Notes: generated from the sequence alone by a model not told the origin. A stretch of DNA of 54,831 bases from Desulfobacca sp. (GCA_020725545.1 DYEV01000017.1:1-54831), one strand, 5' to 3'; positions 1,024 to 19,013 are shown, counted from the stretch's first letter. Numbers and translations are program-made.

Positions 1024-1893
1024 TCAGGGCGCCACAGGGGCCACCTGACCCATGCCTTTGGGCGTGCCATAGCCGATGCCGGCAAAGAAGGCAAAGCGCC
1101 ACAACAGATTGATGCAGCGCAAGACCTGGGGATCGGCACTTTTTTTGGCCCGGTATTCACAGTAGCCGGTGAAGCCGAGCTGCTGGCCGTGGGAGCCGAA
1201 GTTGAGGTTGCGGGTGCTGAGATGATAACCGGACACCATGAGATGAGCTTCCCAGATGGGGGCAGCAAGGGCCTCCAAGCGGCATTCCGGCGGGGAAAAA
1301 AGGTTCCAGCGCCGCAGGAGTTGGGGAAAGACCAGGGCGGGCTGGGGAAATAACACATTCCGGCCATCCTGTTTGAACGTGGTGGCGCTTAAAAACTTTA
1401 GCCCCAGGAGGGTGAACGGCTTCGCCTCCGGCCCCAGGCACGAGTCGGCCATTTCCCGGTACGTGGCCGCGGCGGCGCGGTCATGACTCCGGCTGGCTAT
1501 GTGGGTAATCTGGAAGCGGACCCGGCCCAGGTTCAGGGGCTCCAGCGGCCTGGCTAAAAGGTCCTGTAAGGCCGTCGACAGGTCCTGTTGCAAGGAGGTG
1601 ATCCGGAGCCAGTAGCTCCTTCCCGGTTCAATCTGGATGACGGGGGGGCGCCCACCGGCAGCACCGCCCATTATCTGCCTCTCCCCCCGGTTGCCGCCCC
1701 GGAGGCCGGACAGGGTAAAGGGGCGGTCCTGCACATCGGGATCGTGCAGTCTGTCAACCCAGCCATCGGCAGTGCGCTGGAGCAGGGTCATAAAAGCCCC
1801 GTGCACCAGGTGGCCGTTGGTGGCGGGGAGCGTCCCGCCCTGCAGGGCCCGCAGGTGGACGAGGAGGGCCAGTAACTCGGGAGCGTCAGACAT
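1024..1893 (-). CDS. cas6: CRISPR pre-crRNA endoribonuclease Cas6
   Basis: 289 aa RAMP-fold endoribonuclease that would cut the repeat RNA to make crRNAs for the Cmr complex. The C-terminal end carries the glycine-rich loop typical of Cas6 (GIGYGTPKGMGQV), and the preceding GYCEYRAKK region fits the second ferredoxin-like domain. The N-terminal half has the expected LLALLVHLRA helix and an NGHLVHGAF motif. I start at the ATG at 1893 (MSDAPELL), which follows the stop of the upstream TPR gene by two bases; the frame stays open further upstream but that would run into that gene. Cas6 is the last gene of the operon and is not fused to the RT-Cas1, unlike Cas6-RT-Cas1 proteins of some other bacteria. 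The catalytic residue cannot be assigned by eye because Cas6 active sites vary. Confidence 0.9.
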   Translation of the reverse strand: MSDAPELLALLVHLRALQGGTLPATNGHLVHGAFMTLLQRTADGWVDRLHDPDVQDRPFTLSGLRGGNRGERQIMGGAAGGRPPVIQIEPGRSYWLRITSLQQDLSTALQDLLARPLEPLNLGRVRFQITHIASRSHDRAAAATYREMADSCLGPEAKPFTLLGLKFLSATTFKQDGRNVLFPQPALVFPQLLRRWNLFSPPECRLEALAAPIWEAHLMVSGYHLSTRNLNFGSHGQQLGFTGYCEYRAKKSADPQVLRCINLLWRFAFFAGIGYGTPKGMGQVAPVAP

Positions 1894-1895
1894 GC

Positions 1896-4145
1896 TTAAC
1901 TTAATAACGAAGCCTGGATCTTTTGGAGCAGAGGATGGTGCGGGTCTATCTTGGCGGCTTGCTCCACCCACATCTTGGCGGCTTGAGGTGATAGAATATC
2001 CCGGGATAATCTGGCCAATTCCAATAAGGTCTGGAGTTTCTCAGCGGCCGGCATCTTTTTCGCCACGTCTTCATAGCGACCCCCGGCAGTTTCCAGGAAT
2101 TGCTGGGCCTGATCGCGCCGGTCGAAGCGGAGGGCAAAATCGGCCAGGGCAGTCAGCGTATACAGATTTTGGCCCCGGCTTTGATTAATTATTCGACGGA
2201 AGCACTCGGCCATCTGTTTCTGGTCGCCCTTGGCATCATAGCACAGACCCAGGACATGCCAAGCCGGGATGTTTTCGGGCCAGCGCCGAAGTAGGGTCTC
2301 CAATTGCTCCTGGGCCTTCTCTGCCTCTCCGGTCTGGAGCCACAGGTTGGCCTGGGCGACGAGCAGGCGGGGATTGTGGGGCTCCACCAGCAGAGCCCGG
2401 GCCACATATTCCTGGGCCAGGGCAAGGTTGGGATGGTCCAGATTCTCCCGGTTCAGGAGGGCCAGCTCCAGGAGAACGGCGACATTTTCCGGGGCCAGTT
2501 CCAGGGCCCGGTGCAGATGCTTGGCGGCCTCCTGCCATTGCCCGCGCCTCCGGGCCATATTTCCCAGGGAATGCAGGGCATACAGATTGCGCCGGTCCAG
2601 TTGCAACAGCCCCTGCCACGCCGTCTGAGCTTCCCCCCATTCGCCCCGGAAAAAATGCCAGCGGCCCCGGACATGCAGCACATAGATATTGTTCTTGCCC
2701 GGATCAAGCCGCTCTGCCTGCTCCACGTCCTGGTAGGCCTTCAGCCACTCGCCAGCCTCCAGATACATATCAGCCCGGGCTACCAGGGCGGGGATATTGC
2801 CAGAATCCAACCGCAGAGCCTGGGCAAAACACATTTCCGCGCCGCGGGAGTTCTGGCGTTCCGCCTCGAAGACGCCCCGGGCCTGCCAGAGATAAACGTT
2901 TTGGGGAACGGCTTCGCAGGCATCTGTGAAGGCAGCTCCGGCTTCCTCCTGCCGGGAAAGATCGACCTGGCTCCAGCGACTCAGCAGATGGGCCCGGGCC
3001 TGGAGCAGATAGACATTGCGCTGGTCTTGTTTGAGGGCGGTCTCGACAACCTCCTTGCCTTCCTTAAAGAGCCCGAGCCGCCCCAGACACTGGGTCCAGA
3101 TCAGGCGCTCCGCGGCGCTGCCGGCGTGGCTAAAAGTTTTGATCTGCTGCCAGTGCTTCGTTACCAGGGTGCGGATCTGGGAGAACTGAAAGCTCGTCCC
3201 CAGGGACCAGCGCCAACGGCTGTGGGCCAGCCAGCTTTGCAGGAGTTTTAGGATAACGTAGCGCTCCTCCCGTTCGGTAGACCGGCAGGCAGAGAAGAAC
3301 AGATCGTAGCTGTCCAGGGCAAGACCGCCGGCATCGGCCAGGATCCGGAAAAATCGCCGGGCATAGCCTTCTCCACGGGTGGACACCAGGAGAGCCGGAG
3401 GTTTCTCCCGCTCCACCCAGAAAAGAATGCCCTGCTGCGAGGCCTCCTCCACCACCTCGGCCAGGGTGTCCGGGTCGGCTTGGCTTAATTGCGCCAGCAG
3501 CTCCAGGGGCAGAGGCACGTCCCAGGCGTCTCCCAATACCACCCAATAGTGAGCCTGGCGCAGGATAGTGTTTCCCGTCTCTGCCAAATCCCGGTAAATC
3601 TGGTCGGTAGCGCCTGCTTCCCGCCGGGCAAAATCATTCGCCAACTGTTCCGGCTCAGATGAAAAATCGATAAAGTCCGGGAAGTAAAGGCAGGGAAGCT
3701 TCAAAGGCTGCTCTTCCCACATCTCCGCCGGTCCGGTGGCGATGGCCAGTCGCCCCGGCCTGACCCAACCCTCCAGGGTCAGGGCCAGGTTATGAAAGAG
3801 CGGGGCCTGGTGAATAATCCATACATTGACGCCTTCGCCCGGCGGGGGCAAATACGGCTTATCCAGGAATTGGGTAAACTGCGCCTGTTGCTTTTGCCAT
3901 AACAGCTCCCCGGCGATCAAACAGAGGAAATTCAGAAGCGTATGTTCCGCTTGAGGGGCTGAGGGAAATATGAGGACGCCGCCGGTATTTTGCCAACCCG
4001 GAATCGCCGCCAGGGTTTTTTGCCGCAGTTCCTGCAATTTTTCCAGATCAAAGAGATGAGCTCCCCAAACCGGTCGACCTTTCACATACAGGGAAGTCCA
4101 GTCTGGGAGGTCGTCTAACTGCTGCAGATAACTTGGGATAAACAT
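1896..4145 (-). CDS. Degenerate STAND-like / TPR-repeat protein in the CRISPR operon
   Basis: 749 aa. From about residue 330 to the end it consists of tandem helical TPR repeats, roughly ten, with the usual pattern (for example NIPALVARADMYLEAGEWLKA and WHVLGLCYDAKGD). The first 200 residues look like a P-loop NTPase of STAND type that has lost its motifs. A VLIFPSAPQAEHTLL stretch sits where Walker A should be but lacks the GK[ST]; VWIIHQAP replaces Walker B; RLAIATGP resembles a sensor strand. A winged-helix-like segment follows (about 205-265). This domain reading is inference. The chosen ATG at 4145 has GAGG ten bases upstream; a TTG at 4154 is also open. It overlaps the gene before it by 31 bp and abuts cas6, so it is translated as part of the CRISPR operon. 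It has no CHAT protease domain, so it is not the TPR-CHAT protein of type III-E. Confidence 0.8.
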   Translation of the reverse strand: MFIPSYLQQLDDLPDWTSLYVKGRPVWGAHLFDLEKLQELRQKTLAAIPGWQNTGGVLIFPSAPQAEHTLLNFLCLIAGELLWQKQQAQFTQFLDKPYLPPPGEGVNVWIIHQAPLFHNLALTLEGWVRPGRLAIATGPAEMWEEQPLKLPCLYFPDFIDFSSEPEQLANDFARREAGATDQIYRDLAETGNTILRQAHYWVVLGDAWDVPLPLELLAQLSQADPDTLAEVVEEASQQGILFWVEREKPPALLVSTRGEGYARRFFRILADAGGLALDSYDLFFSACRSTEREERYVILKLLQSWLAHSRWRWSLGTSFQFSQIRTLVTKHWQQIKTFSHAGSAAERLIWTQCLGRLGLFKEGKEVVETALKQDQRNVYLLQARAHLLSRWSQVDLSRQEEAGAAFTDACEAVPQNVYLWQARGVFEAERQNSRGAEMCFAQALRLDSGNIPALVARADMYLEAGEWLKAYQDVEQAERLDPGKNNIYVLHVRGRWHFFRGEWGEAQTAWQGLLQLDRRNLYALHSLGNMARRRGQWQEAAKHLHRALELAPENVAVLLELALLNRENLDHPNLALAQEYVARALLVEPHNPRLLVAQANLWLQTGEAEKAQEQLETLLRRWPENIPAWHVLGLCYDAKGDQKQMAECFRRIINQSRGQNLYTLTALADFALRFDRRDQAQQFLETAGGRYEDVAKKMPAAEKLQTLLELARLSRDILSPQAAKMWVEQAAKIDPHHPLLQKIQASLLS

Positions 4146-4945
4146 GTTATACAATCCTCGAGCTCAGCGCGCTTTTTCTGATCCAGGTGTTCCAAAAATC
4201 GCTGCCACTCTATCCGCAGCCGGCGATTGGCGGAATTCCAGGTATTTTGATTGAATTGAGACCCTAGTTGTCTTTTGGCTTGATTTTGGAATTGGAGATG
4301 CTGTGAATTTTCCTCTAAAAACAAAATGATTTGTATACCATCCTCTGAGGATATTTGCCGCAGCAATCGCAGTCGATCGTCCAAAGCCCGTGATCTGGTC
4401 AGCTGGGTAGAGGCGAATTGATCCAGTAGGTCTGCAGCCAGGCGTCGGCAGGTATCTAGAAAATCATCGCTGATTATCTTTTCTTCAGGAGTTAGGGAAG
4501 GGTCAATCACGACCAGCTCCCCCTGCGGTATCTGTTTATCCTTATCTTGGCTTTGATCTAAGCTCCCTGTGTCGAAATATTCGATCAATCGATCCATAAA
4601 CCGCAAAGGGATGACGGTCTTGACCAGATTGATGAAGCCCCCTAAACCTCTTTCCAGAAAATCCTCTAATGTCTTATTGGCTTTTATCCAGACCTGATAC
4701 TCTAAAACCAGAGCAAAGGACATGTCGTTGAGGGTTTCAACAATCCCTTCAACAGGATTGTGGGGAATTTCCCTTGCCAACTTTACCGCCGAAAATTTTT
4801 TTAGGGCTTGACCGGTGGCAAAATAACTCATATTCTTGGCAAAGTCTGAATCGAGCCAGACCTTGCGGCCGGCCTCGCGACTGCAGCCCAACCAGGTGTT
4901 CACGTCTTCCAGCGTAAATGTCACGGTCGGTTCTGGTTCCGGCAT
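4115..4945 (-). CDS. Uncharacterised CRISPR-operon protein, weakly sigma-factor-like
   Basis: 276 aa, not recognised. It is soluble and mostly helical, with higher AT content than the surrounding cmr genes. Two stretches recall sigma-70 family proteins: about residues 90-125 (a helical segment ending VIPLRFMDRLIEYF, then an acidic linker and SLTPEEK), and the C-terminal part, where QLGSQFNQNTWNSANRRLR looks like a helix-turn-helix with recognition helix. The resemblance is by eye and may be spurious. Its ATG lies four bases after the stop of the DHH gene, whose last codons supply a GGAGG. Its 3' end overlaps the TPR gene by 31 bp. The tight coupling implies the three products are made together. 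It could instead be a new helical adaptor. Confidence 0.7.
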   Translation of the reverse strand: MPEPEPTVTFTLEDVNTWLGCSREAGRKVWLDSDFAKNMSYFATGQALKKFSAVKLAREIPHNPVEGIVETLNDMSFALVLEYQVWIKANKTLEDFLERGLGGFINLVKTVIPLRFMDRLIEYFDTGSLDQSQDKDKQIPQGELVVIDPSLTPEEKIISDDFLDTCRRLAADLLDQFASTQLTRSRALDDRLRLLRQISSEDGIQIILFLEENSQHLQFQNQAKRQLGSQFNQNTWNSANRRLRIEWQRFLEHLDQKKRAELEDCITCLSQVICSS

Positions 4946-4949
4946 CTTC

Positions 4950-5771
4950 TCAGGTTGCCTCCCTGATTATGCTGATAAGCTTATCTTTGCTAAGTCGGGA
5001 ACCTAAGTAAGGTCCTCCGATAATCTTGCCGTGGGCCGGTCCACCCCAACCAGGTTCGCTCCGGTTCAAGCTATCCCGGAGATTTTCCAACTTATTGGAA
5101 TGACACGCAATAGTAACTTTGGACAGGCCCGCGGCCACGCTCACCTCGCAACCCAGCCTTTTCAGCAGACCATGGACCCCAGGCAGCGGCGCCTCCAGAT
5201 ATCCCCCCCACAGGCCGCTTTTGGTGGAAAAAAATTCCACCTGACAGGCGTACGAGTCCAGGTCCCGGTAAAGCTTGAGTTTGGCCTGGCGAAAGCCTTC
5301 CCACTCCGGCAACAGGGGGAGAGGTTGCCAGGGGCTTAAGCTCAGGCCCACCACGGTGCGGCACAGTTCGACGCCGGCCCGGAACTGGGCCAGCGGGTCG
5401 GATACAATCAACCTCAGCCCGGAGAAGAGAGCAGACAGGGACCAACCCCGGCCCTGAAAGAGGCAGCCCCGGCCCAGATCCACAGCGGCCACATATTCCG
5501 CCCAGTCCCACAACGCTGGATCTGCCGGCTCCCGCCAGTGCAGGGCCTGGAGGCAGGCCGGCGGCAAGGACAAGGTAGTGTTGTGGTGGTCAAAGTTGCC
5601 CAGCTCCAACTGGCCGCTGCCGCCGCACTCCAGGCAATACACCCCGGGGTCAGCCAGGATCTCCGGCGGCGCCTGGCCCGAGACCTGACGCACCGCATCC
5701 CCCTGCCGCCAGCCCAGCAGGAAGGCGGTGAAGACAGTGTCCAGGTCGGGTTTGTGGATGATGTATTTCAT
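4950..5771 (-). CDS. DHH-family phosphoesterase-like protein
   Basis: 273 aa. The N-terminus carries a DHH motif I (H6-K-P-D9-L-D11) and a true D61-H62-H63 signature, followed by a later aspartate in YVAAVDLG (D98). These are the metal ligands of the DHH superfamily, which includes NrnA/GdpP-type phosphodiesterases acting on short or cyclic nucleotides and inorganic pyrophosphatases. The motif II aspartate is not obvious; an acidic CLECGG stretch lies in its place. The glycine-rich C-terminus (GPAHGKIIGGPYLG) may be a degenerate DHHA1-like substrate domain. The gene lies 38 bp after the Can1-like CARF nuclease gene, so a plausible role is to degrade the cyclic or linear oligoadenylate signal. 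That role is inference: ring nucleases known to me belong to other folds. Confidence 0.8.
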   Translation of the reverse strand: MKYIIHKPDLDTVFTAFLLGWRQGDAVRQVSGQAPPEILADPGVYCLECGGSGQLELGNFDHHNTTLSLPPACLQALHWREPADPALWDWAEYVAAVDLGRGCLFQGRGWSLSALFSGLRLIVSDPLAQFRAGVELCRTVVGLSLSPWQPLPLLPEWEGFRQAKLKLYRDLDSYACQVEFFSTKSGLWGGYLEAPLPGVHGLLKRLGCEVSVAAGLSKVTIACHSNKLENLRDSLNRSEPGWGGPAHGKIIGGPYLGSRLSKDKLISIIREAT

Positions 5772-5809: not shown

Positions 5810-7855
5810 CTATAAAGTGGCTTGTCGCCTGTCCAATGCTTGCATGACCAAATTTTTCAACATATTCGGTTGGTTTAGGAGGCTCAGATTAATTTCCAGA
5901 GGTTCGAATTTAATGCTCGCTATGGCCCATTCTATGGCCTCATTATGGTTGATACCGGGTCTTATCAGAACCGGCAGGGTAAACCTTCCCAATTGGGATC
6001 TGGCCTCAGCGACAATTTCGTTCCGCACCGCTTCCCAGTCAAGGTCTGGAGGGCTCGTGCTCTTGCAGGAAATGGCAATATACTGTCCTTGCCATTGGAG
6101 AACAATATCGATTTCCGATCTGAAATAATTCTGTGGCATAGGGTGCAGCCAGGCCCAACGAATCCCCACCGTTAGATCGGAAATCTTTTTCCCGCCGGCG
6201 GCCAGAAAGGCCCCGGCCACCGCTTCTTCTAGCCAGTGCCCGAAGTCACCGAAACTGGTCACGGTTCCTTCCAGCTTATTCCCATTATTACAGGCTTGAA
6301 ATTGGATTTTCTCTGCGCTAGGAAAAACATCAACGCAGGTAATATAATTGCTGTCGTCTACTTGAATTTGCTCTCCTGCTTGCCAGCATGGCGGCCAAAA
6401 ACGTTTTCTCGGGTTACGTTTAACCTGTTTTGCGACGACATTAATCAGGTTCGAGAGAAAATTTTTTTTTGTCGAAATTTCTACGAGGCTGATACCCTCT
6501 GAGACCAGGCGCCCCCCGACACAAGCCGCCTGAATGGCGATCTCTGGAAAACCAAAATTGCGAGGGCACAAGCCTGGACCAGGAACCAGGGGCTGGATAC
6601 TTTGTGACTGATTATAGAGAGACCATAACCTCACGTTCGGCAGTCTCGCCAAATTCCAGGACTGAGCCTTTGTGCCCGGTGAGATGTTTAACTCCCAAGA
6701 ACCATCTTGAAGCAGATTTCCAAAAGCCTCCGGGTCCTCAATCCTGCCTTGCATATTCGTGGGCCAGAATATCATAGATTGACATTTCACATAATCCCTG
6801 ATGAGGAAGAGGCGGTGGGCCATGACCTTTACCCAAGGGGTTTCCCAATCAACCAGGATGATGGCTCTCTGCGGTGCGTGGCTATAAAGAGCCAACAGCG
6901 TGGCGCTGGGATCGGCCCCCAAAGCTACGATCAAACCTGTCCCATCCTGCCAATCGCCTTTGCACCGGTATGATTCTTTCAGTTTATCCGCCGGGAGTTC
7001 TGAATCTTCTGGGCCGGGTAACAGTTGCCCAGGGGGCTGGTTGAGATTCTGCTCCCAAGTGTCGGCGGTCTCAACGCCTTTTATCCCGTATGTGGCCGCC
7101 CGCTTCAGCATGAGAGTATCGTTGCTCAAAACAGTTAGGATTGGGCGTAATTGCATGATATGGTGCGGTGATTCCAGCAGAGCGGCGACCCGGCGGCACT
7201 CTTGTTTCAGACGGTGATTTTCGGACTCTTTAACCGCAGTGGAGTCTCGCCACAGCCGCACCAACCCATGCAGCCGGCCTTTCCGCTCCACGGCTTTGAG
7301 TAAGGCGAGGGGCGGAGGGGGGGTGAGAATGATTTTCAGGTTGTTCACTTCCTTATCAGAGTCGTTGACCGGCGGCTGCGTGGTGAGCCCATGCAAATCC
7401 AGCAGGGTCTTCAGCCCGATGTCCACCAGCTCCCATTTCTGCCCATCTTCTAAACTGTGCAAATAATTAAAATCTGCGTAGAGGGGCTTAATTCGGGGTT
7501 CGTCCTTAAGGTGATGGGAGATGAGGGCCACTTGGTAGTTGAGGCCAGGAGAAGTGTCATAGTAGATGGGCTCCGACAGCCCGCCCCCATTGATCTTCTG
7601 CCGGATAATATTCCAGGCTAAACTGTTTTGATCAGCCGTGGTCGTATCCAGGGCAATGAAGAGTGGCTCCACGGCCAAATTGGAGGCTAGATTTTGTAGG
7701 TAGGACTCCAGCCGCTGGGCTTCGGTTTTGGTATCCTTCGTATAAAGGAGAATGACCCGTTCAAGGGGATGATTAGTATCCATCTCCAGCAAGGTCCTGG
7801 CCGTGACGGCCACGGCGGCGGGCTGCTGGCCCACCAAGGTTATGAGTGTACTCAA
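5810..7855 (-). CDS. Can1-like CARF-domain nuclease (type III CRISPR effector)
   Basis: 681 aa. The N-terminal domain has CARF features: an ILSTLITLVGQQPAAVAV strand-helix start, ILLYT, and a ligand-loop motif DTSPGLNYQ near residue 100. A second Rossmann-like region follows in the middle (GLIVALGADPSATLL...), consistent with tandem CARF domains. The C-terminus is a PD-(D/E)XK nuclease: an E in HWLEEA (about 540), EIDIVL (about 580) and ISCKS (about 597). This order and length fit Can1, which nicks DNA when bound to cA4. I choose a TTG start at 7855 because it overlaps the cmr6 stop as TTGA and has GGAGGG seven bases upstream; the longer ATG frame would run 94 bp into cmr6. Expected activator: cyclic oligoadenylate from Cas10. 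Confidence 0.88.
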   Translation of the reverse strand: MSTLITLVGQQPAAVAVTARTLLEMDTNHPLERVILLYTKDTKTEAQRLESYLQNLASNLAVEPLFIALDTTTADQNSLAWNIIRQKINGGGLSEPIYYDTSPGLNYQVALISHHLKDEPRIKPLYADFNYLHSLEDGQKWELVDIGLKTLLDLHGLTTQPPVNDSDKEVNNLKIILTPPPPLALLKAVERKGRLHGLVRLWRDSTAVKESENHRLKQECRRVAALLESPHHIMQLRPILTVLSNDTLMLKRAATYGIKGVETADTWEQNLNQPPGQLLPGPEDSELPADKLKESYRCKGDWQDGTGLIVALGADPSATLLALYSHAPQRAIILVDWETPWVKVMAHRLFLIRDYVKCQSMIFWPTNMQGRIEDPEAFGNLLQDGSWELNISPGTKAQSWNLARLPNVRLWSLYNQSQSIQPLVPGPGLCPRNFGFPEIAIQAACVGGRLVSEGISLVEISTKKNFLSNLINVVAKQVKRNPRKRFWPPCWQAGEQIQVDDSNYITCVDVFPSAEKIQFQACNNGNKLEGTVTSFGDFGHWLEEAVAGAFLAAGGKKISDLTVGIRWAWLHPMPQNYFRSEIDIVLQWQGQYIAISCKSTSPPDLDWEAVRNEIVAEARSQLGRFTLPVLIRPGINHNEAIEWAIASIKFEPLEINLSLLNQPNMLKNLVMQALDRRQATL

Positions 7856-9141
7856 GATTGACCCTCCGGCGCTACGGTCATTTCCCCATACCCCAATGCC
7901 GTCTTGGCGCCAAGCCCAAATTCGCCCAGAGCCCGTGTCAGCCACTGACCCGCTATCTCCAGAAGTTCCTTATCCTGGGAGGTAAGCAGGAGCTGAAAGG
8001 TGACGCCCGGGGCCACGGTGAGGAAGTAGTTGGGCACCGGGCTGTAGTAGTCGGCGGGCGGATTGTGTTCCGGATCGCTGTAATATTGCTGGTAATGGAC
8101 ATTGATGATGTCCAACTCAAAGAGCTGCCCCTGAACCTGAGGAAAAGCATCGTAAAAGCAGACCTCGCCCCGACACTCCTGGCTGCCGAAGATCTGGCGG
8201 TAGTGGCAGCTCGCCTCCTCCTCCCAGACGTCAAAGAAGGCTCCTGGTTTGCCGGAGAGAAGGTCCCCTTGGGGATAGTCCTGGAGATACGGTAAGGTTT
8301 GAATCTTCTGCCACACTTTTTGCATCTCCTCTTTGATCTTCTTCAGTTCCTTCTGCAGAACCTGGCAACTCTTCCCTGCCCCTGGGAAAAGAATCAGCTT
8401 TTCCAGTAACTCCAAGGGGGTGAGTTTTTTGGGTTTGCTCTCATGCAGGTTATTGATATCCTCGGGCTGCAGGCGGGGGATACCGAATTTTGCCGCCAGT
8501 TCCGCCAAGGCCCAGGAGCGGCAGATCCCCTTGAGGGCCGTGCCCGGCAGGTAAGGCACGCCGTACAGCCGGTGCAGAGTCAGGCCGGTCTCCAGGGGCG
8601 TGGTGTTGCCGAAACCGATGGACAGACGCGCCCCGGTCTTGGCCGTCCTGGCCCACAATTCCAGGCCGGAGATATTTTTTAGGGTCTTTAAAGTGTTTAT
8701 CAGTTCCTGCTGCCGCTGCCAGCCATGTGAAGCGGCGCCTTGGGCTCGCAGACGGTCGGCCAGGGACACCAGGTCTTTCCATAAATTCTTCTTGTCAATC
8801 TCGGTGAATTGTTCATCCTGATATGGCAGCAGGCGCTGCAGGGCCAGGGAGAAATTATCGCATTTCTTCCAAGCCAGCGCATCATCCCCACGAACATCCC
8901 GGGGCAGAGGAAATATGGTCTTGGCCTGGTTGGTTGGCGAGGGGCTGTTGCCACCCGAGCCGGTTTTTCCCCCCGGCTTGCCCTTATATTTTTGCTTCCC
9001 GCTCGACGGCGAGGCCGCAGCCAGAGGCTTCGGGGCCGCAGCCGCGTTTAAACGCCTTTGCCAGTAGGGAGAGGCTTGGGAGGGGCCAGAGGCTTCTTGA
9101 AAACGCGACGCGGTTGGTTGGTTGGCTTCCCGGTCGGCCAT
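7852..9141 (-). CDS. cmr6: Type III-B RAMP protein Cmr6
   Basis: 429 aa. RAMP-superfamily subunit that caps the backbone of the Cmr complex near the crRNA 3' side. Family hallmarks are TGLTLHRLYGVPYLPGTALKG, a mid-protein FGSQECRGEVCFYDAFP segment, and the C-terminal G-rich loop LGAKTALGYG. It is longer than usual because of an N-terminal tail of about 90 residues that is low in complexity (Ala, Ser, Pro, Gly, Lys) and probably disordered, plus a lysine-rich helical insertion around 240-270. The start follows the cmr5 stop by three bases. The 3' end overlaps the Can1-like gene by four bases, which suggests coupled translation. Confidence 0.93.
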   Translation of the reverse strand: MADREANQPTASRFQEASGPSQASPYWQRRLNAAAAPKPLAAASPSSGKQKYKGKPGGKTGSGGNSPSPTNQAKTIFPLPRDVRGDDALAWKKCDNFSLALQRLLPYQDEQFTEIDKKNLWKDLVSLADRLRAQGAASHGWQRQQELINTLKTLKNISGLELWARTAKTGARLSIGFGNTTPLETGLTLHRLYGVPYLPGTALKGICRSWALAELAAKFGIPRLQPEDINNLHESKPKKLTPLELLEKLILFPGAGKSCQVLQKELKKIKEEMQKVWQKIQTLPYLQDYPQGDLLSGKPGAFFDVWEEEASCHYRQIFGSQECRGEVCFYDAFPQVQGQLFELDIINVHYQQYYSDPEHNPPADYYSPVPNYFLTVAPGVTFQLLLTSQDKELLEIAGQWLTRALGEFGLGAKTALGYGEMTVAPEGQS

Positions 9142-9144
9142 AGC

Positions 9145-9585
9145 CTAAGCCTCCTCCGTCTTGGATTCCAGTCCGCTGACCACCAGCTTGAGATAGTTCA
9201 GAAGTTTTAAGGTTTCCACCGTGGCCCGGAGATAGGTCCGGCTGTTGTTTTCCCGGATTTGTGCCAGGAGGACCCCCGCGTTATAGTCCACCCCATAGGG
9301 CGGGGCATAGTGGTCGAAATCAAGGTTGACATCACTCTTGGTCAGCCAGCGCTCCAAGTGTTCCAGGAGCAGTCCCTCGGCATTTTTGCCCTGCTTGGTC
9401 TTCTTGGCCGCCAAGGAGGCCAGGGCCTGACCCAGGCCGTTGGCATTCACCATAGCCGGGAACTTTCTCACCAGGGCCGCATACCGGGAAAAATCCCCCT
9501 TTTGGGCTTCCGTGGCAAACTGAAATGCCGCCCAGTAGCGCATCTGCTCCAAAGTCTGCCGTTTCGATGGACTTGCCCCGTTCAT
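9145..9585 (-). CDS. cmr5: Type III-B small subunit Cmr5
   Basis: 146 aa all-helical small subunit of the Cmr effector, forming the minor filament along the target RNA. The N-terminal QTLEQMRYWAAFQFATEA helix and C-terminal YLRATVETLKLLNYLKLV helix are characteristic. The length fits the family. The start codon overlaps the cmr4 stop as ATGA, and cmr6 begins three bases after the stop, so it is translationally linked on both sides. Confidence 0.93.
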   Translation of the reverse strand: MNGASPSKRQTLEQMRYWAAFQFATEAQKGDFSRYAALVRKFPAMVNANGLGQALASLAAKKTKQGKNAEGLLLEHLERWLTKSDVNLDFDHYAPPYGVDYNAGVLLAQIRENNSRTYLRATVETLKLLNYLKLVVSGLESKTEEA

Positions 9586-10544
9586 GACGTCCCTCCCGGA
9601 GACACGGCATAATACCGGAGCCGCACCAGGCCCCGACCCACGGTCTCGTCGCCACCCATTTGCAGGATCTTGCCCTCACGGATAATGTTCTGCAGAAATT
9701 CCATGCTCTTCTGGGCCTCCTGCCGGCCGTTGTTCTTCAGGGGAAGATTCTTGGCCAAGGCCAGGGAGTAAAGCAGGGTGTCGGCCAGGAGCAGCTCCTG
9801 GCTCCACAGGGCGCCGCTTTCCACCGTGCCGGTCTCGCCGATGCGGATACGGGTCACTACTTCGGTGGAAAGATTGACAAAATCCTGAAAATAATCATCA
9901 GGCACCACCACCAGGGACTTTTCCAGGCGGTTTTTGATATAGCCATAGACCGTTTCGCATGGCATGGCATTATCTTTTAGCCAGGTAGCCAGCCGGCCAA
10001 TGGCCTGGGTCTGACTGACATCCTGTTCCAGAGCCATATCCTCCAGGATGACCTTGCCGATTTGTTGACCATCCTCTTTCAGGGCTACCTGACACGGGTT
10101 GGCGGTCAAAGCCTTGTCATCCAAAGGCTGGAGCTCGGCGATGGCCTCCATGACCTCACCTGCCTCTCCCAGCATGTGCAGCCGGCGCCGGAAGCGTTCC
10201 AAGACCATGGGGCAGGTAATCCAAGCAAACCCGCCCGCAAAGGACCGCACCGGGAAGAGCAGCACCTGGGCATCGGTAAAGGCCAGAGAGCCGCTGTGGT
10301 CGCTGGTCTGTTCCGTGGCGGGGCCGAAGACTCGGATGATTTCTTGCCGTTTACCATTGTCTGACCCGTACAGTCCCTCGCTCCAGTCCCGGCAGGCCCC
10401 CTTGACGCCGCTGGCCTGGATAATGGGATAGTTGGTATGCCGCTCCCGTTGCAGGGGCAGGTCCACGTGGGAAATATTGGTGCCGCTGCCGGCGTGCAGG
10501 GGCGTTTCGCAGTAGAAAAAGACTATGGCTGCTTTTTTGAACAT
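9582..10544 (-). CDS. cmr4: Type III-B backbone RNase subunit Cmr4
   Basis: 320 aa RAMP protein that forms the repeated backbone of the Cmr complex and cleaves target RNA at 6-nt intervals. The conserved loop LHAGSG...HVDLPLQRE is present; D28 in VDLPLQRE corresponds to the catalytic aspartate known for this family, so the subunit should be an active RNase. YPIIQASGVKG is the following family motif. I use the ATG at 10544 because GGGAGGG lies five bases upstream; the frame is open to 10568, but that would overlap cmr3. Confidence 0.94.
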   Translation of the reverse strand: MFKKAAIVFFYCETPLHAGSGTNISHVDLPLQRERHTNYPIIQASGVKGACRDWSEGLYGSDNGKRQEIIRVFGPATEQTSDHSGSLAFTDAQVLLFPVRSFAGGFAWITCPMVLERFRRRLHMLGEAGEVMEAIAELQPLDDKALTANPCQVALKEDGQQIGKVILEDMALEQDVSQTQAIGRLATWLKDNAMPCETVYGYIKNRLEKSLVVVPDDYFQDFVNLSTEVVTRIRIGETGTVESGALWSQELLLADTLLYSLALAKNLPLKNNGRQEAQKSMEFLQNIIREGKILQMGGDETVGRGLVRLRYYAVSPGGTS

Positions 10545-10561
10545 CCTATCCCTCCCGGTGG

Positions 10562-11737
10562 TTACCACGTCCCCACGGCCGCCAGGCCAAAACTGGCCGC
10601 CGCCTGGAATTTATAATGTCTCATGAGGCTCTGAAAATGATAATGATTGATCAAAGTTAGGGCGTCGGCCTCAGTCAGCGCTTTCTCCAGCTCAAAAAAA
10701 TAAACGCTCCCCGCCGCCACCGCCCGCCGCAGCCGCCGGGGCGTCTGGGCAGCCAGATTCCAGCCTCCCACAGGTTCAGCCTTCCCCACCGCTGCCGCCA
10801 CCAGGGTGCCCGCCAATCCTTCCAGACGCCAGGTGCAGTCCGCAGGCTCCACATCATCCGGCAGCCACCCGGCCCGGAACAAGGCCGGGGTCATAAGATA
10901 AAGCCGGAAGCGATTCTCCCCAACCAGGGCAGCCTGCAATTCATCCCGGTGCGGCGGCAGCACCTCTGCTGAGAAAAGATCCGGCAACTCGTCCGCCTCA
11001 AGCCGTTGAAAATAAGCCGCCCGGGCCTCACCCCCCAAGGGCAGAAAACCCTGCTCCGGCAGGAGGTCGGCGACATCGCCGCTGCTATTGACCTCCACCA
11101 GGAGCGAGGCCCCCGCCGTCAATCGGGTAAATTCAACCATATAGATCTGCCCGGTCTCCGCGGTGCGCTGCGGCGTCAGGCGGATACCCAAACGCGGCTC
11201 GGGGATGGCTATTTCGGTTTGCCGCAGGATATCGGGCTCTGGGCGCCGCAGCAGGTAGGCCAAGAGTCTTTTCCCACGGAGATACAACGGTGGGCCTTGA
11301 TCCTCCGGCGATTTTACCCCCTCGGTGCGGCTTACCAGCTGGTACGGCAGGCTTGGCGGCGATAATGCCAACCCCGGCCACGCCGGCTCCACGGGCCGGA
11401 GGTAATCGGGATACATCTCCCCTCCCGTCTGCTTGCTCACCAGGATATCTTTGGGGGTTGGCAAGAGTGTCTCCTGACCTCCGAAGGAATCCCGCCCGAC
11501 CAGAAAAGGACCCCGAAAACGCAACTGACCCAGGTCATTCGGCCCGCCCAGCCGGTCATCCCTTTGGAACCCGGTGTGGTCCAAGTTCAGGTGGTAAAAC
11601 ATGGCGGCTCGCAGCGCCCCGGCCATGGTCAACGGCGTTGGCGGGAACTGACTGGCCGCCCGGATCACCTCCCCGGCGGTAAACGGGCGGCTGCCCCGAA
11701 ACAGCAACACATCCATTGGTTCTATTCTGAGCCACAT
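10562..11737 (-). CDS. cmr3: Type III-B RAMP protein Cmr3
   Basis: 391 aa subunit that binds the crRNA 5' handle and pairs with Cas10. The N-terminus MWLRIEPMDVLLFRGSRPF followed by PPTPLTMAGALRAA is diagnostic for Cmr3, and the C-terminal half shows the expected FRAGWLPDD region. It lies two bases after the cas10 stop and 17 bp before the chosen cmr4 start, in the usual cas10-cmr3-cmr4 order. Confidence 0.94.
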   Translation of the reverse strand: MWLRIEPMDVLLFRGSRPFTAGEVIRAASQFPPTPLTMAGALRAAMFYHLNLDHTGFQRDDRLGGPNDLGQLRFRGPFLVGRDSFGGQETLLPTPKDILVSKQTGGEMYPDYLRPVEPAWPGLALSPPSLPYQLVSRTEGVKSPEDQGPPLYLRGKRLLAYLLRRPEPDILRQTEIAIPEPRLGIRLTPQRTAETGQIYMVEFTRLTAGASLLVEVNSSGDVADLLPEQGFLPLGGEARAAYFQRLEADELPDLFSAEVLPPHRDELQAALVGENRFRLYLMTPALFRAGWLPDDVEPADCTWRLEGLAGTLVAAAVGKAEPVGGWNLAAQTPRRLRRAVAAGSVYFFELEKALTEADALTLINHYHFQSLMRHYKFQAAASFGLAAVGTW

Positions 11738-11739
11738 GG

Positions 11740-14634
11740 TTAGTCTTCCTTTCCCGCCAGGAACCGGCCCAACAGGAGGAGCTGCGTCAGGACCTCCCAG
11801 GGATCAAGATGTGATAACTCTGTCCTCTCTCGCTTTATATTACCCAGCAATTGCCAAATACCGTGCAGTGTTGCCGTGACTCGCTTCTGCGCCCCGGTCT
11901 TGCTGTGCTGTTTGGCCAGGCGGCCAACTTCCAGTTCCTGGGCTCGGGCCAGATCAAACTGGAGGGTTGACGGCATCGCCAGCCCCGGCGCCCAGCGGTG
12001 CTCCGCCAGCCGGTAAGGCAGGCGGCTGGAAAGCTCGTCCGCGGTCAAAAGCCCAACAATTTCGGCCAAGGCTTTCAAGGAACGGCAGGTATGGCTGTGG
12101 GGATCATAAGCAAAAGGCAGGCCGACCTCGGTGCTCTCCCCGGAGCGGCGCAGCAGCCGCACGGCCCAGGCATCCCGCCCCAGCTTCTGCTTGGCGGTCT
12201 TTTTTAACACTTCCGGGGCCAGTTCCAGGGCGTGATAGAGGGGATAGGAATGATGTACAATGATGGCTGCCATGCTGAGGGTCATGCCCTCGTGCGGCTC
12301 CTCGCCGGGGACGCCGGGGCGAACTCCTCCCAACAGGCGGCGCCACCGGCCCTTAATATCTTGATGGTCTTGCCGCAGGCCCCGAAACCCTTGATACAAC
12401 CCCTGCATTACCGGCAACAGGTGCGCCAGGGGCAGCAGGGCCAGGACATCGTCACCGCCGGCATAGATGAGTTTGCCGGCATGTTTTTCCTCCACCAGGG
12501 GACGCGCCTCATAGAGGGCGAAGTTCTTCAGGCTGTCGCTCAGAGCCAATTGCAAAGCCGGGCCTAGAGGCCGCGGGTAATTACTTACCGGCCACAGTCC
12601 CTTAAGGAGGTCATGCTCACGGACCTGGGGATGCAGCAGCCAGCGGAACTGCGGCGCCCTTTGGCCGGTGACCCATTCGCCCATCTTGTCCCCGTCCAGG
12701 GCCAGGATGGCGTAATACTTGGGTGGCGCATCGATGCCGGCGCTCTTCTTGGCCTGCGCTAACAAGACTGCCGCCGCCTCCTGGCACTCCTGGCGTCCTG
12801 ACGGATCGTGCAAGCCATAGGCTTGTTTCAGGGCCGCTTCTTCAAAGGAGTCGGGATAAAGCCAATCGCCATCCAGGCGCAAAAAAGCAATGCCGTTATC
12901 CACCTTTTGGCACCGCTGCGTCAAATAGTTTCCCGCAGCCGCCGGATAGGGCAGGTTATGATTCTCGGCGAATTTGGCGACTGCTTTGGTGTAGGTTGTC
13001 AATGCGGTGGCCAGATCGCCTTGCTGTTCCTTGACCGCCTCCAACAACCGGCCCCGCCAGGCCGCCGTGGCGATGCCCGCGGTGGAGGGAAAGAGGTGAT
13101 GATCCAGTTGTAATTCTTTTTCAAAGAAGGCTTCCAGAGCCAGACGCCGGGTGAGGCAGATGCTGCACAGGCTCTCGCCTTTGCGGATGCGGCCCAGGAG
13201 CTTCTGGCCGGACGCCCGGTCCAACTCCCCCAGGGCTTGCCAAAACTCCCGCAGCCAGCGGTAACTGTGGCGCTCAGCCGCTGGATTTTCCTTGATGACC
13301 CGGCTCTCAATCCGGTCAGCCACGGCCGGTATGGCCGCCAGGGTTTCCCAGGATGGATGCAGCGCCTCCCAGTCGCCGCACAGGGAGCATTTGTGCCCCG
13401 GTTCTTCCACCTGTTGGAAATCCCGCAGGTTTTTCCGGGCGGTCAGGGCCCGGCCGGTCAAACCGGATAGGAGGTGAAAGGTCTGGCCCACATGCAGCTC
13501 GTAACCTCGGGTCTGTAAGTTCCGGAGAAGTGTTTTAAAGTTATTGATCACGTCGGGTTTGAGGTCAGGCTCCACTGCCTTGATCACCGCCTCATGGTTA
13601 TTCCCCAAGGGGCAGACCACCCAATAAATGCCCAAACTGTCAATAAACTGGGCGGCCTGGCGCTCCCAGATCGCCTCCAGACCTGTATCGACTACCCTCC
13701 AGCCATTCTTTATAGCTTCTGTCACCCGATCGCGTACCTTGGTGGTCACCCTCTGCCAGCCCTCCGCCACTGCCTGGGCCGCTTTTTCAGCCAACTCCCC
13801 GGCGCGCTTAGCCGGCACCAGGGCCGCAAAGATATTGGGGATGCTGCCGATTTCCAGGGCCGACTTTTTCGGCGCCGCCAGCCCCGCTGCCCCCAAACCT
13901 TTCTCCTGAACCAGCCAATGGTCAACCAACGGCTGCTCCCGCAAGGACGGCGACAGGATGGCGTCCGGGCCGCAGACTTCGGCCACCGCCTTGATGGCCT
14001 GCCAGGAGAGGTATGAGAGCAAGTAGCTTCCCATCCAGGCGTCCTGGGTGCGCCGGGCCACGCTCACCGCCTTCTGGGCCGAAGCAATAGTGAAGAGCAG
14101 GATGGCCGGCTCCGGCAGCGCCCCGGCCACTGCTGATGCGACTGCGGCCTGTTCCCAGACCGTGTGCGACGGTATGCGGGGGTCGGCCGGCAGGATCTGC
14201 CACAGCTGCCCCAGCCCGGTGGAATCATCCTTAGCCAGCAGCTCCGGCAACAGCCGCCAGAGGGCCAGGAACAGGTGCTCGTCGTTTGAAGTTTTGGACT
14301 TCAGGTCCATCAGGACAGCCAAAACTTGTTGGCGCAGGGCGTCGGCAGAGAGCTCCTGGGGAAGGTGCAGCGGGATTTCCTGGGCCGACAAAGGATGTAT
14401 GAGGCATGGCTGCCGCCGGAAACAATCTTCCGGCAGGCCCTGGACAAAGGGTGGGATATCCAGGCCCGCGGCCAGGGCTGAACTTTTTACCACCGCGGCC
14501 AGATCAATGCCGCTCCCCGCACCCAAGATGGCAGCGAACAACTCATCCCGATGCGCTTCAGCCTCCACCGGATAGAGGGAATAATAAGGCAGACGATGGA
14601 GGAAGGTGGCGATCTTGGTTTGCCAAATATTCAT
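11740..14634 (-). CDS. cas10: Cas10 (Cmr2), cyclic oligoadenylate synthase subunit
   Basis: 964 aa large subunit of the type III-B complex. The second Palm domain keeps an intact GGDD at residues 726-729, with LDGDKMGEW in the preceding Palm strand region, so cyclic oligoadenylate synthesis should be possible. Two CxxC pairs (KCSLCG near 412 and LCSICL near 490) form the zinc-binding region. The N-terminal HD nuclease looks lost: the expected HD reads H-R (FLHRLPYYSLYPVEAEAHRDE), with no clear HD motif elsewhere in the first 100 residues. Target DNA cleavage by Cas10 itself is therefore doubtful. Its ATG overlaps the cmr1 stop by four bases. Confidence 0.95.
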   Translation of the reverse strand: MNIWQTKIATFLHRLPYYSLYPVEAEAHRDELFAAILGAGSGIDLAAVVKSSALAAGLDIPPFVQGLPEDCFRRQPCLIHPLSAQEIPLHLPQELSADALRQQVLAVLMDLKSKTSNDEHLFLALWRLLPELLAKDDSTGLGQLWQILPADPRIPSHTVWEQAAVASAVAGALPEPAILLFTIASAQKAVSVARRTQDAWMGSYLLSYLSWQAIKAVAEVCGPDAILSPSLREQPLVDHWLVQEKGLGAAGLAAPKKSALEIGSIPNIFAALVPAKRAGELAEKAAQAVAEGWQRVTTKVRDRVTEAIKNGWRVVDTGLEAIWERQAAQFIDSLGIYWVVCPLGNNHEAVIKAVEPDLKPDVINNFKTLLRNLQTRGYELHVGQTFHLLSGLTGRALTARKNLRDFQQVEEPGHKCSLCGDWEALHPSWETLAAIPAVADRIESRVIKENPAAERHSYRWLREFWQALGELDRASGQKLLGRIRKGESLCSICLTRRLALEAFFEKELQLDHHLFPSTAGIATAAWRGRLLEAVKEQQGDLATALTTYTKAVAKFAENHNLPYPAAAGNYLTQRCQKVDNGIAFLRLDGDWLYPDSFEEAALKQAYGLHDPSGRQECQEAAAVLLAQAKKSAGIDAPPKYYAILALDGDKMGEWVTGQRAPQFRWLLHPQVREHDLLKGLWPVSNYPRPLGPALQLALSDSLKNFALYEARPLVEEKHAGKLIYAGGDDVLALLPLAHLLPVMQGLYQGFRGLRQDHQDIKGRWRRLLGGVRPGVPGEEPHEGMTLSMAAIIVHHSYPLYHALELAPEVLKKTAKQKLGRDAWAVRLLRRSGESTEVGLPFAYDPHSHTCRSLKALAEIVGLLTADELSSRLPYRLAEHRWAPGLAMPSTLQFDLARAQELEVGRLAKQHSKTGAQKRVTATLHGIWQLLGNIKRERTELSHLDPWEVLTQLLLLGRFLAGKED

Positions 14635-15764
14635 AGAAGCTGATGTGCTCCCTTATCTCTCAAGATCTTGAGAAAATCATTTATGGCACGGTAATTGGGA
14701 AAATCTACATCCTGGATCACGCCTCCAGAGATCCGAATTTTTTTCCCTCGAGGAAGGAATTGCGCCGGCAGGAAAACTACCACCCCCATAGCCTGGCCGT
14801 CGTGCAAACCCTGGACGTGCAGGAACAGAGGACTAGCCCGACGACCTTTATTGCCCCCTTCCATCAAATCCACCCCCGCTTTCGAACCTTGACTGCGAAA
14901 AAAATAATTATGGGGCAGGCCAAAGGCCGATCGGGCAGGAGCAAATTTTGGGATGATTTTGCCATGTAAATAATCCAACATCAAATCGTGATCTTCCTTG
15001 GCAACTCCAGAGGTTTTTCTCGTTTTCGTTTTAAAATCAATGTAATACGAGCGATAATCTTGGAAAACTTTGTTCAAACCTTTTAGAACCATCATACTTG
15101 ACTTTAAAGCCGGTCCATAAATTATCTTGCTGCTTTTACTGAAATAAGAATAATTTGGCATGCTTGCCGATAGAGGTACATCTTTCAAAAAGTTCTGCAC
15201 ACACTTGACATACTCTTCAGTACTTATTAAGCGCCATCGCGGTATATAATTTTCGAGTTCTTTATGAATTCCCGAAAAACCAACTACTTTAAACGAACCA
15301 AACCCTCTGCGGCTGCGGGCCCCCAGGCCGCCAAACATAGCCAAGGCCCAAAAGGAACGCAGGATCTTAGCCCTGTCTGCTAGTCCCAACGAACTGTTGA
15401 AAGTGATGGTCAATTGCAATTCGGTGCCGCAGTCCAGACCTGGCCGAGTTGTCAGGTTTTTTTGGGCATTCTTGTCATAGCCCACCACACCATACCCAAG
15501 ATATGCGAAATCATGCAGTTTATCACTATTGGCGACTAGCGGTTTTGGCTTTAAAACACTCGTAGATAACCGCACAGGCGATTTGAACTCAGTATTCCCA
15601 AACAGCCTCCCCTCCTCCTGCAATGTATCCGGATATATCGCCCGGTACCAAAACCGCAGCAGGCCCTTCAGGCTGGCGGCCCGGAACTCCGGGGGGCCGT
15701 TTTGGTCGGCGCCGCCCATGAACATGGGAGTCACCAGTTCAATGTCAAAGGTAATCTTTTCCAC
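14631..15764 (-). CDS. cmr1: Type III-B RAMP protein Cmr1
   Basis: 377 aa RAMP subunit at the 3' side of the crRNA. The N-terminus has the family motifs: ITFDIELVTPMFMGG, then FRAASLKGLLRFWYRA and LFGN, and further on GGLGARSRRGFGSF. The start is GTG (15764) with GGAG nine bases upstream. Its central part is more AT-rich than its neighbours. It is the first cmr gene of the operon, 72 bp after RT-cas1, and overlaps cas10 by four bases. Confidence 0.94.
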   Translation of the reverse strand: MEKITFDIELVTPMFMGGADQNGPPEFRAASLKGLLRFWYRAIYPDTLQEEGRLFGNTEFKSPVRLSTSVLKPKPLVANSDKLHDFAYLGYGVVGYDKNAQKNLTTRPGLDCGTELQLTITFNSSLGLADRAKILRSFWALAMFGGLGARSRRGFGSFKVVGFSGIHKELENYIPRWRLISTEEYVKCVQNFLKDVPLSASMPNYSYFSKSSKIIYGPALKSSMMVLKGLNKVFQDYRSYYIDFKTKTRKTSGVAKEDHDLMLDYLHGKIIPKFAPARSAFGLPHNYFFRSQGSKAGVDLMEGGNKGRRASPLFLHVQGLHDGQAMGVVVFLPAQFLPRGKKIRISGGVIQDVDFPNYRAINDFLKILRDKGAHQLL

Positions 15765-18155: not shown

Positions 18156-18201
18156 CATACCTGAAAGAACCCAGCCCCCCGCCTTTTTCGTGCAGCCAGC
18201 G

Positions 18202-18578
18202 GCAAAAGTGTTGCGAAAATTTCGTATTGCCCATATTTGATAATCTCTTCGCATAGTTAAGCCGATTTTGCGCCGTTTGGGGCCCTTTGGGTAGAGGCCG
18301 AAAAGTTCGCAAAAGCCCCTTTTGGCCAGCGCGGCCCGGAGGTGTTGCGAAAAAACCGCCGGAGCCCGAAAAACGGCCAAGACAACATTTTGTTATTCCT
18401 GCTATAATTTGCGGCCCTGGCTGGCCCCGGAGGCCGATTTTCGCAAATGGCCTTTTTTCCGGGGCGCAGCAAAAGTGTTGCGAAAATTTGGAGTTAACAA
18501 TATCAATGAGTTAGGCCAAAAAGGGCGGTTTTAGGCAGAAATTGCCGGGGGCAAAAAGGGGGTTTTGCGAAAAAAACC
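18202..18578. repeat. Repeated TTGCGAAAA elements upstream of RT-cas1
   Basis: A 21-bp sequence ending in GTGTTGCGAAAATTT occurs exactly at 18202-18222 and 18469-18489. Shorter forms lie at 18342-18357 and 18563-18578. Near three of the copies is an inverted partner: TTCGCA at 18248-18253, TTCGCAA at 18306-18312 and TTTTCGCAA at 18438-18446, each 28-37 nt away. The region would be the 5' untranslated RNA of the cas operon on the minus strand. It could be a set of regulator sites or a structured RNA. There is no convincing coding sequence here. Confidence 0.75.
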
Positions 18579-18623: not shown

Positions 18624-18661
18624 ATTTGCAAGGAGGTTTATAACCGGTTGAAATGACCGGG

Positions 18662-18980
18662 GAAGCACTGGAGGAATTCCCGTTAGGGATTGGAAACTTA
18701 TTAATGCCTCATTTGGCGTTAAGCCATTTAAGGGAAGCACTGGAGGAATTCCCGTTAGGGATTGGAAACAGATTTAAAATTAAAAAACAAAAAATTGTTT
18801 TCATGGAAGCACTGGAGGAATTCCCGTTAGGGATTGGAAACACCGTGTCCCCAGTATCCTTCTTCAGGCTTTGAGAAGCACTGGAGGAATTCCCGTTAGG
18901 GATTGGAAACGCATGTAATAATGATCGCAACAGAAATGGAAAAAGAAGCACTGGAGGAATTCCCGTTAGGGATTGGAAAT
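18662..18980 (+). CRISPR. CRISPR array, 5 repeats and 4 spacers
   Basis: 36-bp repeats begin at 18662, 18734, 18806, 18875 and 18945. Each starts GAAGCACTGGAGGAAT and ends GGGATTGGAAAC. Spacers are 36, 36, 33 and 34 bp. The repeat can fold TCCC-gtta-GGGA, and cleavage at the base of that stem leaves exactly eight bases, TTGGAAAC, the usual type III handle length. The last repeat ends in T instead of C, marking the leader-distal end. The array is short, and its spacers are more AT-rich than the flanking DNA. It lies between the divergent RT-cas1 and cas2. Confidence 0.98.
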
Positions 18981-19013
18981 GGCAGGCGTATTTTGGGAGG
19001 CGGGCTCTGAACC

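What the first reader, a model, noticed from the sequence alone, without database searches (positions are those of the whole stretch)
1896..5771. Three-gene accessory module (DHH, unknown, STAND-like/TPR) inside a type III-B operon
Between the CARF nuclease and cas6 lie three genes that are not part of the Cmr core. Junctions are 38 bp, 4 bp, a 31-bp overlap and 2 bp, so they are almost certainly co-expressed with the effector complex. One product is a possible signal-cleaving enzyme, one may bind DNA or RNA polymerase, and one is a large protein-interaction scaffold. This set resembles no standard type III accessory cassette I know. A TPR protein together with a sigma-like protein recalls the TPR-CHAT and CASP-sigma genes of type III-E systems, yet this locus is III-B and has no CHAT protease. 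The parallel is inference.
Basis: partly seen in the sequence, partly recalled or inferred. Interest (0 to 1): 0.88.

Follow-up and report, generated by a model that had tools for sequence, protein, structure and literature searches.

The report
CRISPR III-B operon with sigma-like module
Inside a bacterial RNA-sensing CRISPR (type III-B) operon lie three conserved extra genes, a likely signal-destroying enzyme plus a tightly coupled pair that looks like a divergent transcription sigma factor and its large TPR partner, suggesting this immune system may also switch genes on, not only cut nucleic acids.

Summary
They are not strain-specific: the triplet recurs in order in two other Desulfobacca-group genomes. 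It is really two separable parts. (1) The DHH protein is a distant MYG1/DHH-type metallo-phosphoesterase; the eight other loci found (Desulfobacterota, Bipolaricaulota) all have CARF or type III neighbours, four with transcription-type partners (CARF-sigma54 activators; Lon-CARF plus zf-HC2) and one near a sigma70-like gene. (2) The sigma-like and TPR genes form an always-overlapping pair, found five times, each inside a III-B operon. The N-terminal domain of the sigma-like model matches region 2 of many solved sigma factors, although no sequence profile detects it. Best explanation: Cas10 makes cyclic oligoadenylate, Can1 acts, the DHH enzyme removes the signal, and the TPR protein controls a divergent sigma factor that launches a transcriptional response. 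Linkage is shown and the enzyme class well supported; the sigma role rests on fold evidence; the switch is inferred. It works like CASP (III-E) and Calp but is a member of neither.

The parts
4950..5771 (-). DHH gene: MYG1-like DHH metallo-phosphoesterase, 273 aa; invariant D9, D11, E48, D61-H62-H63, D98 across eight homologues
   Evidence: alignment; profile reaches a PF03690 MYG1 protein; hhalign 91% vs at most 2% for 30 shuffles
4115..4945 (-). sigma-like gene, 276 aa; residues ~10-124 match sigma region 2; C-terminal helix with [NRA][TI][WFY]x[ST]xNRRL[RK] recalls a sigma region 4 recognition helix
   Evidence: alignments; AF2 model; VIA-align 2 matches to sigma factors; sequence profiles negative (36, 37, 59, 70, 94)
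1896..4145 (-). TPR gene, 749 aa from ATG 4145: N-terminal ~320 aa of unknown fold (possible degenerate STAND NTPase plus winged helix) followed by a TPR superhelix
   Evidence: Pfam TPR families; model: TPR confident from ~320; Foldseek TPR superhelices; alignment
5810..7945 (-). Can1-like CARF nuclease, 711 aa; PD-(D/E)xK region around residues 568-649
   Evidence: CARF4-PDDEXK and Csx1 models; motif region
1024..1893 (-). cas6
   Evidence: start at ATG 1893
11740..14634 (-). cas10/cmr2 with GGDD cyclase motif, no N-terminal HD seen
7852..11737 (-). cmr3 (10562-11737), cmr4 (9582-10568), cmr5 (9145-9585), cmr6 (7852-9141)
   Evidence: cmr3 and cmr5 also by matches in a second III-B locus
14631..15764 (-). 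cmr1
15837..18380 (-). reverse transcriptase-Cas1 fusion
18655..18981 (.). CRISPR array, five repeats containing GAAGCACTGGAGGAATTCCCGTTAGGGATTGGAAAC (last copy one base different) at 69-72 bp spacing

Best explanation
A type III-B signalling operon that carries, besides its CARF nuclease, a signal-removal enzyme and a candidate transcriptional output arm. Steps: (1) target RNA activates the Cmr complex and the Cas10 GGDD domain makes cyclic oligoadenylate (motif seen; activity inferred). (2) The Can1-like CARF nuclease is switched on by that signal (family knowledge; inferred). (3) The DHH protein, a MYG1/DHH-type metal-dependent phosphoesterase, degrades the cyclic signal or its linear products and resets the system (enzyme class supported; substrate inferred from constant CARF company and the precedent of the archaeal MAD DHH-DHHA1 nuclease). 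(4) The sigma-like protein is a divergent sigma70-family protein that recruits RNA polymerase to selected promoters (fold-level support for region 2; promoter use inferred). (5) The overlapping, translationally coupled TPR protein binds it as an inhibitor or adaptor and releases or delivers it when the Cmr complex or a CARF protein is activated (inferred). The outcome would be an infection-triggered gene expression programme, by analogy possibly including the cas genes themselves.
For: Gene order DHH, sigma-like, TPR, cas6 downstream of a CARF gene is conserved in three species. The sigma-like/TPR pair without DHH occurs in two distant Desulfobacterota families, inside full or partial III-B operons (L030: Cmr6, pair, Cas6, CARF; L031/L101: Can1-like, Cmr1, Cas10, Cmr3-6, Cas6, pair, Cas1, Cas2), always with overlapping reading frames. 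The DHH family occurs at nine distinct loci, all with CARF or type III neighbours, including CARF-AAA-HTH sigma54 activators (PADLOC RtcR_PspF2, E 6e-94 and 5e-101), Lon-CARF proteins next to zf-HC2 proteins (twice), and a CARF protein with a sigma70-like gene nearby. DHH enzyme class: profile hit to a PF03690 MYG1 protein, hhalign 91% against a best of 2% in 30 shuffles; all four motif positions conserved. Sigma fold: in the VIA-align 2 list, the rows covering residues ~1-125 are sigma factors (sigmaS Z 6.9 at 2.9 A over 96 residues, sigma32 6.8, SigI1 6.6, SigH 6.3, sigmaA 5.5, ECF SigL 5.6) with one exception (HK97 gp6, Z 4.8). Precedents: MAD DHH-DHHA1 nuclease degrades cOA (PMC7854544); CASP and Calp use sigma factors (PMC10028731, PMC11229360).
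Against: No sequence-profile method detects sigma homology and shuffles are not clearly beaten; Z of 5-7 can be only a common helical arrangement, and the model has mean pLDDT 59.5 from three sequences. Foldseek alone found nothing significant. No anti-sigma or protease gene lies in the window's operon to explain release. The DHH gene is missing from two of five sigma-like/TPR loci, so the pair does not depend on it. Nothing shows which nucleotide the DHH protein cuts; the named MYG1 enzyme is an RNA exonuclease (own knowledge).
Confidence: 0.45

Rival explanations
1. The pair is a defence effector, not a transcription module: the TPR protein is a STAND-like sensor/effector with a helical partner (the so-called sigma-like protein) that keeps it inactive or links it to the Cmr complex.
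For: The N-terminal pattern (beta strand, loop, long helix, then a hydrophobic strand, then a winged-helix-like stretch, then TPRs) is STAND-like (by reading); one member has GLGKD where a Walker A motif would lie; STAND-TPR proteins are common in defence (own knowledge). Sigma homology is not shown by sequence.
Against: No Walker A motif in any of the five members; no recognisable toxic domain; fold matches point to sigma region 2 for the partner.
Confidence: 0.25
2. The pair serves CRISPR adaptation or crRNA handling: it sits next to cas6 in all five loci and directly upstream of cas1-cas2 in one.
For: Gene order; the window operon also carries RT-Cas1.
Against: Three of the five contigs are too short to show cas1; the pair lies before cas6 in four loci and after it in one; no nuclease or polymerase motif was recognised in either protein.
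Confidence: 0.12
3. The DHH protein is not an off-switch but an RNA exonuclease effector or trimmer, as MYG1 is.
For: Nearest named family is MYG1 exonuclease.
Against: Its constant neighbours are CARF proteins of very different outputs (nuclease, protease, sigma54 activator), which share only the signal.
Confidence: 0.3
4. The genes are passengers with no role in CRISPR function.
For: The module is rare (5 of 395 sampled genomes with a sigma-like hit, one of them a marginal fragment).
Against: Conserved order, overlaps and type III company at every locus across several families, while a type III locus is a tiny part of each genome.
Confidence: 0.03

Closest known systems
CASP / Craspase of type III-E (Csx29 TPR-CHAT, Csx30, CASP-sigma)
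   Same: A TPR protein and a (predicted) sigma protein encoded with a type III effector; proposed transcriptional output
   Different: III-B multi-subunit Cmr effector instead of Cas7-11; no CHAT protease, no Csx30; the sigma-like protein is far more divergent (CASP-sigma scores HHpred 100% as ECF, PMC10028731)
CalpL-CalpT-CalpS (SAVED-Lon, anti-sigma, ECF sigma)
   Same: cOA-based type III system with a sigma output
   Different: No Lon or SAVED protein and no CalpT-like gene in this operon; relatives of the DHH gene do sit beside Lon-CARF plus zf-HC2 proteins elsewhere
MYG1 exonuclease (PF03690) and the DHH phosphoesterases, including the archaeal cOA-degrading MAD nuclease; NrN (SAM-AMP) as a functional parallel
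   Same: D-x-D, acidic, DHH and final D motif order; likely metal-dependent phosphodiester cleavage; MAD and NrN remove type III signals
   Different: No Pfam DHH, DHHA1 or MYG1 profile hits the window protein; substrate unknown
Can1
   Same: CARF and PD-(D/E)xK regions in one long chain upstream of the module
   Different: Only distant profile matches (E about 1e-6 to 1e-7)

Membership tests
Type III-B CRISPR-Cas | Cmr1-6 set with Cas10/Cmr2 | tested here: met
DHH/MYG1 phosphoesterases | Conserved D-x-D, acidic, DHH and final D motifs in order | tested here: met
   D9, D11, E48, D61-H62-H63, D98 invariant in eight homologues
DHH/MYG1 phosphoesterases | Profile match above curated cut-off (PF01368, PF03690) | tested here: not met
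   only the indirect link through and hhalign 91%, so it is filed as a distant relative, not a member of either Pfam family
Type III ring nucleases / signal-degrading enzymes | Degrades cOA or SAM-AMP | not testable with these tools
   needs an enzyme assay
Sigma70 family | Region 2 fold | tested here: inconclusive
   favours it (Z 5.2-6.9, 80-97 residues aligned); Z below 8 and a low-confidence model
Sigma70 family | Match to sigma70 region 2 or 4 profiles | tested here: not met
   the hhalign controls ecf vs rpoD and nrnA vs recJ also failed, so the profile-profile part of this test is weak. The protein is therefore called sigma-like, not a sigma factor
Sigma70 family | Binds RNA polymerase and directs promoter use | not testable with these tools
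   needs pull-down and ChIP-seq
CASP (type III-E) | TPR-CHAT protease and Cas7-11 in the locus | tested here: not met
   CHAT only elsewhere in the genome
Calp | SAVED-Lon protease in the locus | tested here: not met
STAND NTPases | Walker A motif in the N-terminal domain | tested here: not met
   by reading the alignment: no GxxxxGK[ST] in any of five members; one has GLGKD
TPR proteins | Multiple TPR units | tested here: met

The most novel reading that the evidence does not exclude
A third, protease-free way for CRISPR systems to turn on gene expression: a canonical III-B complex controls a new, very divergent sigma family through a dedicated TPR (degenerate STAND) partner, and an unrecognised MYG1-like family is a general off-switch shared by type III systems, often those with transcriptional outputs.
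Probability: 0.35. Interest if true: 0.88.

Novelty: new variant of a known kind. Interest (0 to 1): 0.72.

Why it matters
Only two CRISPR-linked sigma pathways are described in the papers read (CASP, Calp), both run by a protease. A sigma-like/TPR pair in ordinary III-B operons would extend a transcriptional response to the common multi-subunit systems and offer a protease-free switch. The DHH family gives a testable candidate for a new class of CRISPR signal-degrading enzyme; the ring-nuclease survey read here does not mention DHH (PMC12409355).

Tried and rejected
Sequence profiles for the sigma-like protein: Pfam, NCBIfam, PADLOC, PHROGs, PDB sequences: nothing. Profile-profile comparison with ECF, FliA and RpoD sets taken from relatives: under 1%; an earlier run used some wrong ORFs and is discarded. 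Score against shuffles: only one of five members stands out, and only with the ECF set. DHH against NrnA, RecJ and a third DHH set: under 4%, but the positive control nrnA vs recJ also failed, so uninformative; MYG1 worked. Family PF03690 sought in 99 genomes: no hit, and the controls were silent too, so no conclusion. Plasmids and viral contigs gave no relatives of the module. The weak DHH hit in G196 lies in an ORF without a DHH motif and is treated as noise. The weak sigma-like hits in G159 and G132 contain stops and are treated as noise. Foldseek alone on the sigma-like model: no significant hit. The TPR N-terminus could not be modelled. Rfam: nothing in 1-20700. No paper found that describes this cassette.

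Full report
What is there. The window (contig C14 of a 2.94 Mb, 38-contig genome) comes from a relative of Desulfobacca (named relatives). On the minus strand it carries RT-Cas1, Cmr1, Cas10, Cmr3, Cmr4, Cmr5, Cmr6, a 711-aa CARF/PD-(D/E)xK protein, the three genes of the finding, and Cas6, next to a five-repeat CRISPR array. Cas10 has a GGDD motif and no N-terminal HD, so this complex most likely acts by making cyclic oligoadenylate (inference).

Is the set conserved? The same three genes in the same order, downstream of a CARF gene and followed by cas6, occur in two other Desulfobacca-group genomes (contigs MUKC01000093.1 = L013 = G026 and CALGOE010000256.1 = L012 = G025). Identities to the window are 61-62% for DHH, 34-38% for the sigma-like protein and 49-50% for the TPR protein. 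The sigma-like protein evolves fastest.

The set is two parts. Profiles of each protein were searched through sampled genomes of the phylum. The TPR N-terminal profile and the sigma-like profile found two further loci in other families without any DHH gene: L030 (Cmr6, sigma-like, TPR, Cas6, CARF) and L031/L101 (Can1-like CARF, Cmr1, Cas10, Cmr3, Cmr4, Cmr5, Cmr6, Cas6, sigma-like, TPR, Cas1, Cas2). In all five loci the end of the sigma-like gene overlaps the start of the TPR gene, by 31, 32, 28, 14 and 4 bp, a hallmark of translational coupling. All five are inside III-B operons or directly beside Cas6, and have a CARF gene (only its tail in L012, a fragment in L030). In the 395-genome sample four real hits and one marginal fragment were found, so the pair is rare but not unique.

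The DHH gene travels separately. Beyond the three triplet loci it was found in L014/G297, L015/G260, G280, L016 (Bipolaricaulota), G199 and G374: nine distinct loci with the window. All have a CARF gene next to it or a type III operon around it: a CARF-PDDEXK tail (L014; the contig ends there); CARF-AAA-HTH sigma54 activators beside Cas10 in G260 and G280 (PADLOC RtcR_PspF2, 6e-94 and 5e-101); Lon-CARF proteins with a zf-HC2 protein in G199 and G374, the latter also with a Can1-like protein; and in L016 a CARF protein, a sigma70 region 1.2-2-3 ORF followed by a region 4-like ORF, and Cas10. The common factor is the CARF signal, not one output; transcription-type outputs recur.

What the DHH protein is. 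No curated profile hits it. Across eight homologues the invariant residues include K7, D9, D11, E48, N59, D61-H62-H63 and D98. Its profile reached a protein in G150 (E 3e-4) that is a clear PF03690 MYG1 protein (3e-11) related to solved MYG1 exonuclease chains. Profile-profile comparison gave 91% over residues 11-102 against at most 2% for 30 shuffles. I file it as a distant relative of MYG1/DHH phosphoesterases. The substrate is inferred: a metal-dependent DHH-DHHA1 nuclease (MAD) already removes cOA in Sulfolobus islandicus (PMC7854544), and NrN removes SAM-AMP (PMC11229360). The ring-nuclease survey PMC12409355 does not mention DHH.

What the sigma-like protein is. Sequence methods are silent; shuffle tests are not convincing, although profile-profile control comparisons between known distant relatives failed as well. 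The AF2 model from three sequences has mean pLDDT 59.5, with residues ~11-130 mostly at 72-84 and a dip to about 56 at 51-70. Foldseek gave no significant match. In the structural second look seven of the top eight rows are sigma factors (the eighth covers another part of the protein), and all rows covering residues ~1-125 but one are sigma factors: sigmaS, sigma32, SigI1, SigH, SigA, ECF SigL, Thermus sigmaA; 80-97 residues aligned, rmsd 2.6-3.8 A, Z 5.2-6.9. For 7f0r_F, 9a4r and 9a58 the sigma identity is read from the entry title, chain length and range. The tool warns that Z below 8, or 13 for helical bundles, can be a common arrangement, so this is suggestive, not proof. The architecture (N-terminal helical domain, poorly modelled linker 128-185, C-terminal helices with a conserved NRRL[RK] segment) is what a two-domain sigma would show; the resemblance of that segment to the GTVxSRLxRAR helix of region 4 is from own knowledge.

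What the TPR protein is. A TPR superhelix from about residue 320 to the end. Most of the first ~320 residues were not modelled with confidence (pLDDT under 50 for 1-275 and 308-319). Their sequence pattern recalls a degenerate STAND NTPase followed by a winged helix, with no Walker A motif; this remains unproven.

Mechanism and rivals. See Best explanation. Shown: linkage and overlap. Well supported: DHH enzyme class. Partly supported: sigma fold. Inferred: substrate, RNA polymerase binding, TPR as switch, output genes. The closest working analogues are CASP (Csx29 protease cleaves Csx30, which inhibits CASP-sigma; PMC10028731) and Calp (PMC11229360); both need a protease that this operon lacks, and CHAT proteins in this genome lie on other contigs. 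The module is therefore judged to work like these systems, with moderate probability, but not to be a member.

Limits. Genome searches sampled the phylum and could not cover other phyla for the sigma-like/TPR pair; absence elsewhere is not shown. Two of the nine DHH loci and three of the five pair loci lie on short contigs. Neither interaction nor activity was tested.

Verdict. Observation confirmed; interpretation partly supported and sharpened. New variant of a known kind; interest 0.72, held down by the missing sequence-level proof of the sigma assignment.

Noticed in passing
L017:1712-3812 (G199) and L098:5015-7112 (G374): Pairs of a zf-HC2 zinc-finger protein and a Lon-CARF protein next to the DHH gene in type III loci; looks like a CARF-based counterpart of CalpT/CalpL, with no sigma gene seen nearby.
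   Followed up: partly
L020:1135-2625 and L018:4381-5856: CARF-AAA sigma54 activator-HTH (RtcR/PspF-like) genes beside Cas10 and the DHH gene in Adiutrix-group genomes: a possible cOA-to-sigma54 route.
   Followed up: partly
L016:12267-13477: In a Bipolaricaulota type III locus a sigma70-like gene is split over two ORFs (regions 1.2-2-3, then a region 4-like ORF).
   Followed up: partly
window 15837-18380 and 18655-18981: RT-Cas1 fusion beside a short five-repeat CRISPR array.
   Followed up: partly
window 11740-14634: Cas10 keeps GGDD but shows no N-terminal HD dipeptide, suggesting loss of its DNase.
   Followed up: partly
L017:4137-4982 and L098:7182-7904: A similar small lipoprotein-like gene follows the Lon-CARF gene in both loci.
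   Followed up: no
L102 and L103 (G000 contigs C23 and C1): CHAT-domain proteins, one in a 1343-codon open frame, elsewhere in the genome and away from this CRISPR locus.
   Followed up: no
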